Below the pieces are notes generated by a model. It saw nothing but the letters and a program-made list of their open reading frames with translations, searched no databases and was not told the DNA's origin. Positions 1,781 through 19,873 of a stretch of 19,873 nucleotides of DNA are shown piece by piece (the first letter of the stretch is position 1; every line of letters begins with the position of its first letter). Both the position numbers and the translations under genes were made by a program. The stretch comes from Lysobacteraceae bacterium (lineage in GTDB: Bacteria; Pseudomonadota; Gammaproteobacteria; Xanthomonadales; Wenzhouxiangellaceae), in NCBI GenBank assembly GCA_020201235.1, contig JAIVHD010000224.1:1-19873 (forward strand), given 5' to 3'.

Positions 1781-2881
1781 ATGGCGGCAACCATTGCCTC
1801 GTTCAAGGTCGACTATTTTCAGTTTCTGAATACCGATGGCAAATTGATCGAAGGGGCTCAGATTCCAGCGCTGGCGCGCGATGTCAAGCAGTTGACCAGC
1901 CTGTATCGGCTGATGACGCTGACCCGCGTTTTCGATAAGAAATCCATCGCCTTGCAGCGCACCGGCAAACTCGGCACTTATGCTTCGTGCCTCGGTCACG
2001 AGGCTGCACACATCGCGATCGGCTCGGCCATGCGTGAAGAGGATTGTTTCGCGCCGATGTATCGCGAGTACGGTGCCCAGTTCTGCCGCGGGGTCAAGAT
2101 GTCGGAGGTCTTAATGTATTGGGGCGGCGACGAGCGCGGCAATGACTTTTCCGGACCCCGGCATGATTTCCCCTGGAGCGTACCGATTGCCACGCAATGC
2201 CTGCATGCCGCGGGTGCCGCGCTGGCCTACAAGTTGCATGGCCAGCCGCGTGTCGCAGTCAGCGTGGTCGGCGACGGCGGCTCGTCAAAGGGCGATTTCC
2301 TTGAGGCGATCAATGCCGCAAGCGCCTGGAAGCTGCCGCTGGTGCTGGTTATCGTCAACAACCAATGGGCCATTTCGGTGCCGCGCGAAAAACAAAACAC
2401 GGCCCGTACGCTGGCCCAGAAAGGCATCGCCGGTGGCCTGGCCTCGGTCCAGGTCGACGGCAACGATTTGATTACATCCCGTTGGGTCATGGACAAGGCG
2501 ATTGCCGCGGCGCGCGAGGGCCGGGGCGGATCGGTCGTCGAGATGATGACCTACCGGCTTTCCGATCACACCACTGCCGATGACGCGCGCCGCTACCGTC
2601 CTCAGGATGATGTCGATGAGGCCTGGAAGAAAGAGCCGCTGGGGCGGCTTCGCAACTATCTTCTCGACCAAGGCTTCTGGGACCAGGTCAAGGAAGAGGA
2701 ATTGCTGGCCGAGTGCGCCAAGCGCGTGCAGGCCGCCGTCGAGGAATACCAGGAGCAGGTTAACAACGATCCACAGCCGGTCGACACCATGTTCAACTAT
2801 ATGTTTAAAAATCTGCCCCATCACCTTGAAGAACAACGTGATATTGCGCGAAAATTTGCACGCGAAGGAGGTCAGCACTGA
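1781..2881 (+). CDS. pdhA: 2-oxo acid (probably pyruvate) dehydrogenase E1 component, alpha subunit
   Basis: This is the thiamine-diphosphate-binding half of an alpha2beta2-type E1, which decarboxylates a 2-oxo acid and passes the acyl group to E2 lipoate. The protein is 366 aa, normal for the family. [18 protein letters not shown] through VIVNN (residues 164-194) is the classic GDG-x(n)-NN ThDP/Mg motif. [15 protein letters not shown] (67-81) and the regulatory-type loop [13 protein letters not shown] (261-273) are as expected. The loop resembles both Gram-positive PDH and branched-chain enzymes, so pyruvate is likely but branched-chain 2-oxo acids are not excluded. The stop TGA overlaps the next ATG by one base (2881). 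The partner gene pdhB is broken, so this subunit may have no partner from this locus. Confidence 0.9.
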
Positions 2882-3387
2882 TGGCTCAGATCACCCTTGT
2901 CGAGGCCGTCACGCTGGCGCTTGCCTACGAAATGGAACATGATCCGACGGTGGTCGTGTTTGGCGAGGATGTCGGCGTCAACGGCGGCGTTTTCCGTGCC
3001 ACGGCCGGGCTTCAGCAACGCTTCGGCGATGACCGCGTGCTCGACACGCCGCTGGCCGAAGTAATGATTGCCGGCATGTGCGTGGGCATGGCAGCGCAAG
3101 GCATGAGGCCGGTTGCCGAAGCCCAGTTTGAAGGCTTCATGTATCCGATGGTCGACCACATCGTGAATCATGCCGGACGCCTGAGGCATCGGACTCGCGG
3201 CCGTTTGACCTGCCCAATGGTGGTCAGAACGCCCTGGGGCGGCGGTATCCACGCACCCGAGCATCACTCCGATAGCAACGAGGCTACCTGGGCCCATTTT
3301 CCCGGCATTCGCACTGTGATTCCATCCTCGCCCAGCCGTGCCTAACGCATCGTGCAGGCGGCTAGCGAAACCATGGAGTTCGAATGA
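2881..3387 (+). pseudogene. pdhB: 2-oxo acid dehydrogenase E1 beta subunit, internally deleted
   Basis: The open frame 2881-3345 gives only 154 aa, against about 325-350 for the family. The N-terminal half is intact: VFGEDVG (26-32), DTPLAE with ThDP-contacting Glu60, the [11 protein letters not shown] helix, and EHHSDS with His129. It stops right after IPSSPSRA, where relatives continue with Tyr-Gly-Leu-Leu, the rest of the pyrimidine-binding domain and the whole transketolase C-terminal domain. After TAA (3343-3345) the same frame reads RIVQAASETMEFE and ends at TGA (3385-3387), overlapping the E2 ATG as ATGA. That tail looks like a genuine E1beta C-terminus. The simplest reading is one deletion of roughly 480-550 bp that kept frame but made TAA at the junction, from TA of the Tyr codon plus A. 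A strong GGAGG precedes the start. Misassembly is the main alternative. Confidence 0.85.
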
Positions 3388-4688
3388 AAACGTTTAATTT
3401 GCCCGATCTTGGAGAAGGCTTGCCGGATGCTGAAATTGTCGAATGGCTGGTCGCCGAGGGCGATGTGGTCAAGATCGACGATCCGATCGTCTCGATGGAG
3501 ACGGCCAAAGCCGTCGTTGAAGTGCCCTCGCCTTACGATGGCGTGGTCGCGAAATTTCATGGCCAGGCCGGCGATGTGATCAAGACCGGCGCTGCGCTGG
3601 TAAGCTTCGATACGGGAGAATCAGAACAGACCGGACAGGCATCCGGTGATGATTCTGAGCCGCCGGACGAGCCGGCCGCAGATGACGATGTCGGCCAGGC
3701 CGGTGAGCAGCGGGCCGATACCGGAACCGTGGTCGGCAATGTCACGACCTCCGACGAGGTGGTCAAGCAAACCCATTCGAGCATCGGCGGCGTGCGCCTG
3801 ACGCCGGCCGTGCGCGCGCTTGCGCGCAAGCTCAAAGTCGATCTTTCGAACGTCGAAGCGACCGGGCCGGAAGGTACGGTCAGTTCGGCCGACATCCGCC
3901 GAGCAGCCGAACGCGGTCCGGAGCCGGCTGCAGCGGCTCCGGCTGCAGCGGCACCGGCCAAAAGCCGATCTGCTGGGGAAAACACCGAACCGGCAAGCAC
4001 CTCGCAATCCCCGGCTTCCGGCGAGCGCGCCAGCCCCCCGGAAACGGCCGGCGGCGACTGGCAGCCTTTGCGCGGTACGCGACGTACCATGGCCCGCGCC
4101 ATGAGCGAATCGCATGCTCGGGTGGTCGCGACCACGATCATGGACGATGCCGACATCCATGCCTGGCGGCCACGCGAAGACATCACGGTTCGGCTGTTGC
4201 GCGCCCTTTGGGCCGGGGCTCGCGCTGAGCCGGGCCTGAACGCCTGGTATGACGATGAGCAGAATGTTCGCATGGTGCACAAGACCATGCATGTGGGAAT
4301 GGCCGTGGATACGCCCGATGGCCTGTTCGTGGCGCGGCTGCGCGACGTTCATTCATCGGATCGGCAGCAGATGCGCGATGAAATCAATCGCCTGCGCGAA
4401 AATGTTAAGGGTCGCTCCATACCCCCGGCTGATCTCACCGGTTACACCATCATGCTGTCGAATTTTGGCGTATTCGCTGGCCGCTACGCCACACCGATCG
4501 TCAACCCGCCGTGCGTCGCCATCGTTGCCGCCGGTGTTTTGCGTCACGAAGTCGTGCCGGTGCTTGGCGGGCTTGAGGTCCACCGCAGCCTTCCGCTTTC
4601 GCTGACTTTCGATCACCGGGTCTGCACCGGTGGCGAAGCCGCACGATTCCTCAAGGCCATGATGACCGACCTCGAGCTTTCCGATTGA
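3384..4688 (+). CDS. 2-oxo acid dehydrogenase E2, dihydrolipoyl acyltransferase
   Basis: This E2 core subunit moves the acyl group from lipoate to CoA. It is 434 aa with one lipoyl domain (1-80, lipoylated Lys42 in SMETAKAVV), an acidic linker, a peripheral subunit-binding domain (about 138-175, LTPAVRALARKLKVDL to GTVSSADIRRAA), an Ala/Pro-rich linker (about 180-225), and the catalytic domain (about 228-434). The catalytic motif is FDHRVCTGGEAARFL, with His411. The usual Asp of HxxxDG is Thr415; I believe TGGEAARF is a recurring variant in some lineages, so this is not proof of inactivity. ATG overlaps the E1beta remnant's TGA, the normal coupling in such operons. No E3 (lpd) gene follows. 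The repeat element begins 15 nt after the stop. Confidence 0.92.
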   Translation: MKTFNLPDLGEGLPDAEIVEWLVAEGDVVKIDDPIVSMETAKAVVEVPSPYDGVVAKFHGQAGDVIKTGAALVSFDTGESEQTGQASGDDSEPPDEPAADDDVGQAGEQRADTGTVVGNVTTSDEVVKQTHSSIGGVRLTPAVRALARKLKVDLSNVEATGPEGTVSSADIRRAAERGPEPAAAAPAAAAPAKSRSAGENTEPASTSQSPASGERASPPETAGGDWQPLRGTRRTMARAMSESHARVVATTIMDDADIHAWRPREDITVRLLRALWAGARAEPGLNAWYDDEQNVRMVHKTMHVGMAVDTPDGLFVARLRDVHSSDRQQMRDEINRLRENVKGRSIPPADLTGYTIMLSNFGVFAGRYATPIVNPPCVAIVAAGVLRHEVVPVLGGLEVHRSLPLSLTFDHRVCTGGEAARFLKAMMTDLELSD

Positions 4689-15324: not shown

Positions 15325-15788
15325 CAGCCCTTGCGATTTTGCAATTCCTGGAACTGCCGCTTGAGTTCCGGCAACGGTCTTGCATACAGGAACCCGAACG
15401 ACAAAGCACCATCCTTTTCGTGCACCGCATGATGCATCTTGTGGGCCTGGATAAGACGCTTTAGGTATCCGCTTTGCGGATGCCATCTCAGCGGCCAGCG
15501 TCGGTGGACCAGACCATCGTGGAAGATAAAGTAACAAAAGCCGTAACCGGCCATGCCCCAGCCGATCCACCAGGTTGGTCCGAGTTCATCGGCGCCGAAT
15601 GCGATCAACGACATCGAAATGGCCGTACCAACCAGCGCGAACAGGTCGTTTTTCTCAAACAGGCCAGTGCGCGGTTGGTGGTGTGACTTGTGCCAGCTCC
15701 AGCCCCAGCCGTGCATGATGTAACGATGCGTGACCCAGGCCACGCCTTCCATTGCCACCAGTGTGCCCAAAAACAGCAGTGCATTCAT
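15324..15788 (-). CDS. crtZ: Beta-carotene hydroxylase
   Basis: This non-heme di-iron membrane enzyme hydroxylates the beta-ionone rings of beta-carotene to give zeaxanthin. The protein is 154 aa from ATG 15788, chosen because AGGA lies 8 nt upstream; ATG 15797 is an alternative. The four His clusters are complete: HRYIMH (21-26), HKSHH (33-37), HDGLVH (90-95) and HKMHH (116-120). Hydrophobic stretches at 2-19, 49-65 and 72-89 fit an integral inner-membrane protein. Length and spacing match bacterial CrtZ (about 160-175 aa). It is the last gene of the minus-strand crt operon, 16 bp after the ABC permease stop, and it converges with hxpB. Confidence 0.94.
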   Translation of the reverse strand: MNALLFLGTLVAMEGVAWVTHRYIMHGWGWSWHKSHHQPRTGLFEKNDLFALVGTAISMSLIAFGADELGPTWWIGWGMAGYGFCYFIFHDGLVHRRWPLRWHPQSGYLKRLIQAHKMHHAVHEKDGALSFGFLYARPLPELKRQFQELQNRKG

Positions 15789-15804
15789 GAAAATCATCCT
15801 GTCG

Positions 15805-17040
15805 TTACTTGAGCCGGGCAAGGCCGCCGGCACGCCATAGCGTCAGGGCCATGGCCACCAAAAATATTCCGAGCAACACGCTCCAGCCGGGCACCAGATC
15901 CTGTAGACCAACATCGCGCCAGAAAATATCCTGCCAGGATTCGATAACCCAGGCATTCGGTGTCAGCCAGCCGAGGTCGCGCAACCAGCCCGGCATCAGA
16001 AAACGCGGCATCATGCTGCCGCCGATGGCCGAGAGTATAAGAACCGCGAATGCAGACGCTGTCGTCGCCTGCTGGCGACTGCGACACATTGATGCCAGCA
16101 ACAGTCCAAGCCAGGCCGAGACGGCTGCGGCCAGCAACGCCGTGACAAGCCACGGGCCAAACCGTCCTGGCCAGTCGATGCCGTAAAACCACCAGGCGGA
16201 GGCAAAAATGACCGCCGCCTGGGCAAGCCCCAGGGCGGTCAGAAACAAGCCCTTGCCAAACACCACCACGCCATAGCCGCCCGGCCCTGCAACCAGCCGG
16301 TCGACAATCCCGCTGTCGCGTTCTTCGATCAGCGAAATCGCGCCCTGCATCGCCGAAAACAACAGAAAAAGAATGGCCACAGCGCCGGCGTAATAGCTGA
16401 TGCCGTCATCGGCGACTGCGGCACCGGTCAGCATTCGTCGCTCGATCAACCCATCCGGCGATGCCAGAGCATTGCCGTCGCCCAGGCCGCGAGCGGCTCG
16501 GTCACGGTCCAGTCCGGCCAGCGCATCATCGAGCGCCAGCTGCTGCTCATGGGTATATGGGCCGGCCAGCACATCGACCAGCGCCACGGCCCGGGCAATG
16601 CCCAGTTCTGGAAAGCTTGTCTGAAGCAGGGCCTGCAAACGGCCGCTGACCACGGAGGCGGCAAGCGCGCGCGAGGCATCGGCAATGACAACAATCGGTG
16701 CATCGGCATCCAGGTCGGCGTCTGGCTCGGCCCGAATCCAGACCGCAGCATCGAAGCGGCCCGCGCGGACCATCGCTTCAAGGTCGTGCCGGTCGCGTGC
16801 GCTGTGCTCGCCCGGGAGCAGTCCATCGAGCGCGTGAATTGCGTCAAACAACACAACGGTCGCCGGCGTTTCGGCGCTGTCGAGCAACGCCACGCGCATT
16901 TCGAGCTCGTCTTCGCCGGTGCCGGAAAAGACTTCGGCAAACACGAAAAACATCAGCGGCGGCAGCACGAATGCCAGCATCAGGGCACCCCGATCGCGCC
17001 ACAGCGCCAACCACATGATGTGCGCAATGGTCAGGATCAT
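15805..17040 (-). CDS. ABC-2 type transporter permease in the crt operon
   Basis: The 411-aa protein has the ABC-2 export layout: TM1 at about 17-36 (GALMLAFVLPPLMFFVFAEV), a large periplasmic domain at about 38-215, then five more membrane helices (about 222-242, 262-288, 297-318, 328-348 and 378-403). EERDSGIVDRLVAGP (about 249-263) is the conserved amphipathic coupling segment of this family, and WLTPNAWVIESWQDI the typical extracellular helix. Its ATG overlaps the ATPase stop (ATGA), so the two form one transporter. Homologues (YhhJ/YbhS-like) move lipids, polymers or drugs outward. The position between crtE and crtZ suggests a carotenoid-linked substrate, but nothing in the sequence shows that directly. 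Confidence 0.88.
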   Translation of the reverse strand: MILTIAHIMWLALWRDRGALMLAFVLPPLMFFVFAEVFSGTGEDELEMRVALLDSAETPATVVLFDAIHALDGLLPGEHSARDRHDLEAMVRAGRFDAAVWIRAEPDADLDADAPIVVIADASRALAASVVSGRLQALLQTSFPELGIARAVALVDVLAGPYTHEQQLALDDALAGLDRDRAARGLGDGNALASPDGLIERRMLTGAAVADDGISYYAGAVAILFLLFSAMQGAISLIEERDSGIVDRLVAGPGGYGVVVFGKGLFLTALGLAQAAVIFASAWWFYGIDWPGRFGPWLVTALLAAAVSAWLGLLLASMCRSRQQATTASAFAVLILSAIGGSMMPRFLMPGWLRDLGWLTPNAWVIESWQDIFWRDVGLQDLVPGWSVLLGIFLVAMALTLWRAGGLARLK

Positions 17041-18011
17041 CGACGGGTCTCAGGCACCGGAGGGTACAGGGTTCGCCACAGCGATCCCAGCCCGGGGCGG
17101 CGCACGCGCCACTGGCTGACCGGCAGCCCGTCCAGCACGCGTTCGATTTCGGCCGCCGGCGTCTGCTCGTCAACCAGCCCACGCCAACGCCAGTTGCCGT
17201 CGGCCGGGTCGGCGACCAGGCCAATCTGACCCAGCAGACCGGCCTGTCTAGTGCTCGGTGCCTGCAACAGCATTACGTCCCACTCCCGTTGACCGGCATA
17301 GTATTTGGCGATCAAGTCTGCCGGCTTCCCGGAAGCCGCGACCACGCCGTCCTTCAGAAACGCGACACGGTCCGCAAGGCGCTCGAGCTGACCGAGATCA
17401 TGGCTGGTCATCAGGATCCCGATGTCGTGGCCGGCAAGCCGTCCGAGCAGGCTTTCGATGTCGCGACGCGCCGGCGGATCGATGCCGACCGTTGGTTCGT
17501 CCAAAATCAGCAATTCGGGTGAATGGGAAAGCGCACAGGCGATGTTTGTACGGCGCTGCCAACCACCCGACAGTTGCCCGGCGCGGCGTGCCGCGACCGC
17601 TTGCAGGTCGCAGGTTTCAAGCGCGTACTCGGCACACTCGCCGATCCGGTTGCTGGCAACGCCGCTCAAACGACCGAAAGCACGCACGTTTTCAAGCACA
17701 CTCAGATGCGGATACAGCGCGATCTGTTGAGGCACCAGCCCAATCAGGCGCCGGGCCTGCGGGTCAGCATGGGGATCAACCCCGGACACCGAAACCGAGC
17801 CCGCATCGGGACGCAGTCGACCGCAGATTGCCCGAATCAACGTCGACTTCCCGGAACCGTTGGGCCCCAACAGTGCGACGATCTCGCCGCGGCCGACGCT
17901 TAGAGACAGCCCGGTGAGAACCCGCCGGCCGGTAAACGCGAACTCGAGCGCGTCGATGTTCAGCAGCAAAGCGGCGCGGCCGGCAGCGAGTCGGCAAGGA
18001 TCGGCCAGCAT
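17037..18011 (-). CDS. ABC transporter ATP-binding protein in the crt operon
   Basis: The 324-aa ATPase pairs with the ABC-2 permease encoded next. Walker A is LLGPNGSGKST (47-57), the Q-loop lies in VPQQIALYPHLSV, the signature is QLSGGWQRR (146-154), Walker B is LLILDEPTVGIDP, and the H-loop is MTSHD (His204). All catalytic residues are present. The fold belongs to the CcmA/NodI/DrrA-like exporters. After about residue 235 there is an unusual C-terminal extension of some 90 residues, ending in LGSLWRTLYPPV, which resembles the short tail of YbhF-type ATPases. It begins 6 nt after the crtE stop and its TGA overlaps the permease ATG. Confidence 0.93.
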   Translation of the reverse strand: MLADPCRLAAGRAALLLNIDALEFAFTGRRVLTGLSLSVGRGEIVALLGPNGSGKSTLIRAICGRLRPDAGSVSVSGVDPHADPQARRLIGLVPQQIALYPHLSVLENVRAFGRLSGVASNRIGECAEYALETCDLQAVAARRAGQLSGGWQRRTNIACALSHSPELLILDEPTVGIDPPARRDIESLLGRLAGHDIGILMTSHDLGQLERLADRVAFLKDGVVAASGKPADLIAKYYAGQREWDVMLLQAPSTRQAGLLGQIGLVADPADGNWRWRGLVDEQTPAAEIERVLDGLPVSQWRVRRPGLGSLWRTLYPPVPETRR

Positions 18012-18017
18012 CGCCAG

Positions 18018-18797
18018 TCAGTGAAACCGTGCAAACAGCGAGCGAATATAAGCATCCAGCGTGCCGCCGTCAACCGACATTGCCCGCAACACCGAACCGG
18101 CACCATTTATTTCGCTCGTGAGGCGCTGACGCAGTGCCGCCTCGCCGACGTCGTGGATTGAGCCGGCCTTGGCCCGATCGGCGTTGCTGTCCTTGCCGGT
18201 TGCCGGTCGACCGAGGTCGAGCAGGTCATCGGCGGCCTGGAAGGCTTGTCCGACATGCTCGGTCAGGTCGCGGGACTGACCAGACGCCAGACCGGCCGTG
18301 CCGACCGCGTGCGCCAGGCGCGAGACCAGACCGATACGCACCGTTTCGGGCAGCACGTCACAGCGCGCGATCACACCGTAGGCCTGGTTCAACAAGGCGA
18401 TGGCCGCGAGCGTCGTGGTCGCCTCGCCGAATTCGAGGTGGCAGGCCGACCGACCGCGACGCATTCGGGCATTATCCATGCTGGGCAGATCGTCGAGCAT
18501 CAGCGACGCGCAGTGCACCATTTCCAGGGCGCAGCCGAAGTCAACCAGGCGGCCGGGATCGCGGTCGAAATCAAGTGCGGTGAAGATGGCCAGCAGCGGG
18601 CGCACCCGTTTGCCCGGCGATAGCAGGCTGTAGCGCATGGCCGATGCCAGTCGATTGCAGCAGCCCTCACCGCCGGCCTCGACCAGCCGTTCAAGTCGCG
18701 CATCAATGCTGGCCCGCCAGCGGCCGGAAAGCGCTTCAATATCCGGCCCGACCGAACCACCGGCGAGCAGGGTTATGGGATCAACAGTGGCCATCAT
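18018..18797 (-). CDS. crtE: Geranylgeranyl diphosphate synthase, internally deleted
   Basis: CrtE condenses IPP with allylic diphosphates to make GGPP, the carotenoid precursor. From ATG 18797 (GGAG 7 nt upstream) the protein is 259 aa, against about 290-305 for relatives. The N-terminal PGKRVRPLL, the first Asp-rich motif DDLPSMD (102-108), FQAADDLLD (186-194) and GKDSN (201-205) are present. After GQSRDLTE (173-180) the sequence jumps to HVGQAFQ. From memory, Pantoea CrtE has about 48 residues here, with a helix pair and the HFKTS segment whose Lys binds diphosphate. The frame is kept. This suggests an in-frame deletion of about 144 bp near 18255-18262; activity is doubtful. An upstream in-frame extension to 19079 translates the tandem repeat and is rejected. 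Confidence 0.88.
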   Translation of the reverse strand: MMATVDPITLLAGGSVGPDIEALSGRWRASIDARLERLVEAGGEGCCNRLASAMRYSLLSPGKRVRPLLAIFTALDFDRDPGRLVDFGCALEMVHCASLMLDDLPSMDNARMRRGRSACHLEFGEATTTLAAIALLNQAYGVIARCDVLPETVRIGLVSRLAHAVGTAGLASGQSRDLTEHVGQAFQAADDLLDLGRPATGKDSNADRAKAGSIHDVGEAALRQRLTSEINGAGSVLRAMSVDGGTLDAYIRSLFARFH

Positions 18798-18866
18798 GCA
18801 GCAGCTCCGTGGGCATCGACCCCGCTCGGCGAGGGCATGCAAGAATGATCGGCAGTCGCTCCGGCT

Positions 18867-18911
18867 CGGTGCGTCAATCGGTGCGTCAATCGGTGCGTCA
18901 ATCGGTGCAAT
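18867..18911. repeat. Tandem 12-bp direct repeats in the crtE/crtY divergent spacer
   Basis: CGGTGCGTCAAT occurs three times head to tail without a mismatch (18867-18878, 18879-18890, 18891-18902). A fourth unit, CGGTGCAAT (18903-18911), has lost three bases of the pattern. Read toward crtE, each unit contains TTGACG, a -35-like hexamer, but no good -10 follows at the right spacing. Nearby, TGCGAACTATACGCA (18917-18931) is a short dyad. An iteron-style operator controlling both crt directions is possible. Confidence 0.6.
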
Positions 18912-18978
18912 CAAATGCGAACTATACGCAATTTCACGGTGAATCACGCGGCAACGACGTATCGCGCACAATAGCGTG

Positions 18979-19873
18979 ATGAATTCCATGACGAGCGACC
19001 TGGTTCTGGCCGGCGGTGGCCTGGCCAATTGCCTGATTGCCTGGCGCGTGGCCTGCAAACATCCCGGCGCAGCGATCACGATTGTCGAGGCGGGTCCTGA
19101 ACCCGGGGGAAACCATACCTGGTCGTTTCACGGCGGCGACCTCAGGCCCGACCAGCTGCGCGCAATCGAGCCGCTGATCGATTATCGCTGGAGCGCTCAA
19201 AAGGTTGCTTTTCCGGGATTTGAACGCAGCCTCGACACGCCGTACTTCAGCATACGCTCGGGATCCCTTCAACGGTTTATCCGCAGTCTCGACCGAATCG
19301 ATATTCGTACCGACTGCCGGGTTTCGGCGCTCGGCCAGCAATGGGTTCGAACCAAATCGGGCGAAGTCATCAACGCCAGCGCCGTGATCGACGGTCGCGG
19401 GCCGGGCCGCAGCGACGGTCTGGTGCTTGGATTTCAGAAATTTTTCGGCCGCGAAGTGCGCACCCGGGAACCGCACGGACTGACCGCGCCGGTCATCATG
19501 GATGCCACGGTATCCCAGCACGATGGCTATCGTTTTGTCTACCTGCTGCCCTTCTCCGCCGATCAGGTGTTGATCGAAGACACCCGCTACAGCGACGGCA
19601 ACGCGCTCGACGAGCGCAGTCTGCGCCGTGCCATCGACCAATACGCAGCGGCCAAGGGCTGGACGATCGTCGAGACGATGCGCGAGGAACACGGTGTTCT
19701 TCCGATTTTGCTGGCCGGCGATCTGGACCACTTCTGGTCCAGGCCCGAGCATACGGTGGCGCGTTCCGGGCTGGCTGCCGGCCTGTTCCATCCAACCACA
19801 GGCTATTCACTGCCCCAGGCGATTGCGCTGGCCGACGAGATCGCCGCTCACTGGCCGCTCGACGGTGCCGCGC
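18979..19873 (+). CDS. crtY: Lycopene beta-cyclase, N-terminal part (runs off the window)
   Basis: CrtY closes both ends of lycopene to give beta-carotene, using FAD without net redox. At least 298 codons are open to the window edge; the family is about 380-400 aa. DLVLAGGGLANCLIA (7-21) is the dinucleotide-binding start. GGNHTWSFH (43-51), VIDGRGPG (137-143), LGFQKFFGREV (150-160), EPHGLTAPVIMDATV (164-178), GYRFVYLLPFSADQVLIEDT (183-202) and GLFHPTTGYSLP (268-279) are diagnostic CrtY segments. Two starts are possible, ATG 18979 and ATG 18988, neither with a clear ribosome-binding site. It diverges from crtE across a 181-bp spacer. crtI and crtB probably follow beyond the edge. Confidence 0.94.
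   Translation, partial: MNSMTSDLVLAGGGLANCLIAWRVACKHPGAAITIVEAGPEPGGNHTWSFHGGDLRPDQLRAIEPLIDYRWSAQKVAFPGFERSLDTPYFSIRSGSLQRFIRSLDRIDIRTDCRVSALGQQWVRTKSGEVINASAVIDGRGPGRSDGLVLGFQKFFGREVRTREPHGLTAPVIMDATVSQHDGYRFVYLLPFSADQVLIEDTRYSDGNALDERSLRRAIDQYAAAKGWTIVETMREEHGVLPILLAGDLDHFWSRPEHTVARSGLAAGLFHPTTGYSLPQAIALADEIAAHWPLDGAA

What the first reader, a model, noticed from the sequence alone, without database searches (positions are those of the whole stretch)
3322..3390. E1beta gene lost its middle but kept its C-terminal tail in frame
The 154-aa E1beta frame stops at TAA exactly where the conserved Tyr-Gly-Leu-Leu should follow SPSRA. The next 13 in-frame codons (RIVQAASETMEFE, then TGA) read like an E1beta C-terminus and keep the ATGA overlap with E2. 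This points to one frame-preserving deletion whose junction (TA + A) happened to create a stop. E1alpha and E2 remain intact, so either the complex has just died, an E1beta elsewhere fills in, or the assembly has collapsed sequence here.
Basis: partly seen in the sequence, partly recalled or inferred. Interest (0 to 1): 0.72.

Follow-up and report, generated by a model that had tools for sequence, protein, structure and literature searches.

The report
Truncated gene from a faulty assembly
A metabolic gene seems to have lost its middle, but the draft genome it sits in has similar bites missing from other genes, one of them indispensable, so this is most likely a sequence-assembly error and not biology.

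Summary
The E1beta frame (2881-3345) ends in TAA exactly where all five same-genus genomes held continue with Tyr-Gly-Leu-Leu, and the next 13 codons are the true E1beta C-terminus (10 of 13 identical to two mates; the next best of 39,670 six-frame 13-mers in the window reaches 6). Against the mates 474 bp (158 codons) are missing.

It is most likely not a real deletion. The window is one whole contig of a 439-contig, 83%-complete draft genome. The same contig lacks 144 bp from the middle of crtE, and nine further genes of the draft lack 81-623 bp at joins without N, in all three frames. One is leuS, the only copy found in the bin, frame-broken by 293 missing bp. The same script on four genus mates printed three small deletion rows, none of which I read as a loss inside a gene. 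The joins show no long shared sequence, so they do not look like repeat collapse; they look like contig ends butted together across unassembled gaps. No reads were available, so this step is inferred. No second E1beta was found in the bin; aceE is there. The value is a warning about this draft's gene models.

The parts
1781..2881 (+). E1alpha of a 2-oxoacid dehydrogenase complex, 366 aa, intact
   Evidence: PF00676 1.1e-71; 83-87% identical over 363-366 aa to the five genus mates
2881..3345 (+). E1beta, first 154 codons and TAA
   Evidence: 88-92% identical to the five genus mates
3343..3345 (+). Join that writes TAA; 474 bp absent relative to mates
   Evidence: Alignment with four mates; tie range of the breakpoint 1, 2, 1 and 5 bp
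3346..3387 (+). Last 13 codons of E1beta (RIVQAASETMEFE) and TGA
   Evidence: 7-10 of 13 residues identical to the five mates' C-termini
3384..4688 (+). E2 acyltransferase, 434 aa, intact, ATGA overlap with the E1beta tail
   Evidence: PF00364, PF02817, PF00198; 69-78% identical to mates
18018..19079 (-). crtE-like polyprenyl synthase frame with a second internal loss (48 codons) at 18257/18258; breakpoint uncertain by several bases
   Evidence: PF00348 covers only profile 3-125 of 251; 48 residues present in all five mates are absent; 144 bp against four mates; coordinates

Best explanation
Assembly artefact. In the organism E1beta is most likely full length (about 326 aa). In this draft two sequence ends inside the gene were joined without N, leaving out about 474 bp that was not assembled; the join happened to fall in frame and to write TA+A = TAA. 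Shown: the loss, its size and frame, the lack of a long shared sequence at the join, and losses of the same kind in ten other genes of the draft. Inferred: that scaffolding or gap closing with an underestimated gap is the step that made the joins.
For: Window = a whole contig of a 439-contig draft, 83% complete. Ten other genes of this draft lack a piece at joins without N: crtE 144 bp, mutL 278, dcp-like peptidase 225, APH-fold kinase 202, unknown gene 124, dTDP-glucose dehydratase 81, cydB 162, oleA-like 271, DUF481 gene 623 and leuS 293. Remainders mod 3 over all eleven: 0 in five, 1 in three, 2 in three, so frame is not selected. leuS is the only leuS found in the bin and is frame-broken. 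In 93 places (27,275 aa) compared with mate G003, six deletion rows without N; in 80 places (29,150 aa) of four mates three rows, none convincing. One 65-N run is about 38 bp shorter than the matching stretch of G003, so at least one marked gap is underestimated. The rest of E1beta differs from mates mostly at third codon positions (14, 6, 66 against G002), as in a gene under selection until now. Passages of PMC7111523 describe gaps and local assembly errors in MAGs that put incomplete gene sequences into public databases.
Against: No reads, coverage or assembler name could be seen. A join without N is not the usual mark of scaffolding, and the short N runs could be masking. E1beta and crtE are both in frame. 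Nine of the eleven losses were measured against one mate (G003) only, so some (81 bp, 124 bp) could be natural length differences; the DUF481 junction is poorly defined. No intact copy from the same species was found; the nearest full-length proteins are 91.6% identical over the first 154 residues.
Confidence: 0.9

Rival explanations
1. A genuine recent 474-bp deletion in this organism inactivated E1beta, leaving E1alpha and E2 still intact and the complex dead.
For: Clean single junction with little shared sequence, in frame, ATGA overlap kept; no other E1beta or E1beta-type PF02780 domain in the bin; aceE present, so pyruvate oxidation would not depend on it.
Against: It would have to hold for ten other genes too, leuS among them; all five genus mates are intact; E1alpha, E2 and the remaining E1beta codons show no decay.
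Confidence: 0.06
2. The joins come from chimeric reads or from a mixture of strains in which a shortened form won the consensus, not from scaffolding.
For: Two other database proteins of this gene carry internal losses: P0129 (306 aa) and P0001 (187 aa, frame lost). Joins without long shared sequence fit chimeric reads as well as scaffold joins.
Against: The short form would have to win at eleven places; reported contamination is only 0.47%. Without reads this cannot be separated from the best explanation.
Confidence: 0.04

Closest known systems
E1beta of thiamine-dependent 2-oxoacid dehydrogenase complexes (solved relatives 3DUF chain B, 1QS0 chain B)
   Same: First 154 residues and last 13 residues; operon E1alpha-E1beta-E2
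   Different: Lacks residues 155-313 of a 326-aa mate, that is the end of PF02779 and the PF02780 domain
Scaffolding gaps and local assembly errors in metagenome-assembled genomes (PMC7111523, passages seen)
   Same: Incomplete gene sequences at joins, several per genome, no selection on frame
   Different: The passages seen speak of N gaps and of consensus without read support; here most joins carry no N and read support could not be tested

Membership tests
Functional 2-oxoacid dehydrogenase E1beta | PF02779 pyrimidine-binding domain | tested here: met
   7.2e-34, profile 2-145 of 174
Functional 2-oxoacid dehydrogenase E1beta | PF02780 C-terminal domain | tested here: not met
   No match in the 154-aa protein; in the whole bin PF02780 is matched only on C354, in a 708-aa frame of transketolase type
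Functional 2-oxoacid dehydrogenase E1beta | Length near 326 aa in relatives | tested here: not met
   154 aa; 105 of 109 other loci have 322-331 aa, one more has the normal C-terminus in a longer stop-to-stop frame (L022), two are cut by contig ends (L035, L109), one has a broken frame (L070); some loci are the same contig twice
Assembly artefact | Same kind of loss in unrelated genes of the same draft, without frame selection | tested here: met
   Ten other genes, all three remainders
Assembly artefact | Loss in a gene the cell cannot do without | tested here: met
   leuS on C227, two frames, 293 bp missing, no other leuS above 62 bits in the bin; that leuS is essential is established knowledge, not tested
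Assembly artefact | No reads supporting the join | not testable with these tools
   No reads available
Repeat or k-mer collapse | Long identical sequence at both edges of the missing part | tested here: not met
   E1beta tie range 1-5 bp; over all junctions at most 14 columns, with mismatches inside; judged with mates' sequence, since the species' own missing part is unknown

The most novel reading that the evidence does not exclude
The draft is faithful: an organism in an early burst of genome decay by internal deletions of 80-620 bp without repeats at their ends, with mutL among the genes hit.
Probability: 0.03. Interest if true: 0.6.

Novelty: not a real feature. Interest (0 to 1): 0.07.

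Why it matters
Gene-loss calls from this draft genome are unsafe: 6 of 93 compared places had a piece missing at a join without N. If the losses were real this would be a striking case of genome decay, but the broken leuS speaks against it.

Tried and rejected
Second E1beta in the bin: only the window's own copy at E <= 10 with a full-length mate as query; no E1beta-type PF02780. A naturally short E1beta: not seen among 109 loci.

Recurrent truncation point: four of the 120 listed short homologues end exactly at S-P-x-R-A (P0029, P0039, P0077, P0084, P0039 by eye). The search admits only proteins of 0.55-1.75 times the query length and favours hits covering all 154 residues; others end 4 to 9 residues further on; P0077 and P0084 come from contigs of 607 and 546 bases. 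I read them as contig-end fragments; not proved.

A conserved stretch as cause of the gap: among 25 full-length relatives the left edge is more conserved than average (window starting at 460: 60 of 948 are higher) but no peak; the most shared 21-mers lie inside the missing part. Inconclusive. GC of the missing part (64-67%) lies between its two flanks, so no argument from GC.

Rows seen and not counted as losses: L250 (38 bp, at an N run), rows of 48 bp inside matches, a 63-bp row in L239 11322-12344 that I tried to re-align and could not, insertion rows of 17, 17, 19 and 267 bp in G000. One row of the opposite sign, 39 bp missing in G003 in the E2 gene, appeared. Control rows judged not real: 108 bp (overlapping subject pieces), 66 bp (same match has a 72-bp insertion), 13 bp (frame running antisense across two genes); two control insertion rows (376 and 72 bp). 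The first survey chose ORFs badly and lost most genes; redone. One search read minus-strand loci on the wrong strand; redone. Essential-gene searches with rpoB, rpoC and dnaE found pieces at contig ends only; ileS pieces on C31 and C84 were not resolved; none was counted. One literature search gave nothing useful.

Full report
What is there. The window is the whole of contig C421 of a draft genome of 2.89 Mb in 439 contigs, 83% complete, 0.47% contaminated. Three of its five genus mates have contigs of the same length as records titled Lysobacterales bacterium SP244, Wenzhouxiangellaceae bacterium GSL_GB14_17 and Wenzhouxiangella sp. XN79A, so it belongs with the Wenzhouxiangellaceae. E1alpha (1781-2881), E1beta (2881-3345) and E2 (3384-4688) lie in a row beside a tryptophan 2,3-dioxygenase gene on the other strand.

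The E1beta frame stops after SPSRA and holds only PF02779. All five genus mates read SPSRAYGLL and are 326 aa. The 13 codons after the stop match the mates' last 13 residues at 10, 10, 8, 8 and 7 positions; elsewhere in the six frames of the window nothing exceeds 6. Aligned with four mates, 474 bp is missing and the breakpoint is ambiguous by 1-2 bp against three of them and 5 bp against the fourth. Solved E1beta structures cover the whole 325 aa, so the missing half is part of the normal fold.

Not confined to this gene. The window is syntenic with mates G002, G003 and G005. Its genes align with their orthologues over about their full length, apart from frames cut by the window ends and variable termini, except E1beta and crtE. 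crtE lacks 48 residues present in all five mates, at 18257/18258, in frame.

A survey of the draft. I fetched 40 other contigs (two read N throughout; with the window 323 kb readable) and 1.6 Mb of mate G003. In 93 orthologous places (27,275 aa) there were seven deletion rows: six without N (mutL, a dcp-like peptidase, an APH-fold kinase, an unknown gene, dTDP-glucose dehydratase, cydB) and one at a 65-N run that is about 38 bp too short. Sizes are from the offset steps, names. The same script on 125 kb of mates G001, G002, G004 and G005 gave 80 places, 29,150 aa, with three deletion rows of 108, 66 and 13 bp, which I judge not to be losses inside genes; that judgement is mine and its grounds are in Tried and rejected. 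Nine of the eleven losses rest on one mate, G003.

An indispensable gene. The leucyl-tRNA synthetase of the draft lies on C227 in two pieces in different frames, model positions 1-274 and 373-842, with 22 bp between them; the next leuS-model match in the bin scores 62 bits. Against G003, whose gene is a full-length leuS, 293 bp is missing, without N. I found this case through the ileS search, not in the contig sample. That leuS is essential is established knowledge.

Mechanism. The eleven losses are 81-623 bp long with remainders 0, 1 and 2 in 5, 3 and 3 cases. The edges share no long run of bases, which makes collapse of a repeat or a shared k-mer unlikely, though the species' own missing sequence is unknown. 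The sampled contigs hold six short N runs of 12-84 bases; these look like scaffold gaps, though the tools also show withheld stretches as N. The simplest account is joins across unassembled gaps whose length was underestimated, some to zero or less. PMC7111523 (passages seen) says that gaps and local assembly errors of MAGs leave incomplete or incorrect gene sequences in public databases. The assembler of this draft is unknown, and the step is inferred.

Consequences. Neither loss of the complex nor loss of carotenoid synthesis should be concluded from this contig. aceE is present on C243, cut at a contig end, so pyruvate oxidation need not depend on this operon. No intact E1beta of the same species was found: the best ungapped identity over the first 154 residues among the 240 proteins listed is 91.6%; the 154-aa search could not return full-length proteins because of its length limits.

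Noticed in passing
window 18018-19079 (-): crtE-like frame lacks 48 codons in its middle, in frame, relative to all five genus mates.
   Followed up: yes
L282 (G000:C227), about 1947-1958: leuS of the draft is broken by a 293-bp frame-shifting loss without N.
   Followed up: yes
P0129 and P0001: Database proteins of the same gene with internal losses: P0129 lacks about 20 residues, P0001 jumps and loses frame after RTVI.
   Followed up: no
P0064: Ends in ...SDRKSTRLNSSH, which I recall as the translation of a sequencing adapter; not tested.
   Followed up: no
window about 18868-18913: Short tandem repeat upstream of or in the first codons of the crtE frame (APIDAPIDAPID on the minus strand).
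   Followed up: no
window 15327-19872: crtZ-like hydroxylase, ABC transporter pair, crtE and lycopene cyclase lie together; the order is kept in mate G005.
   Followed up: partly
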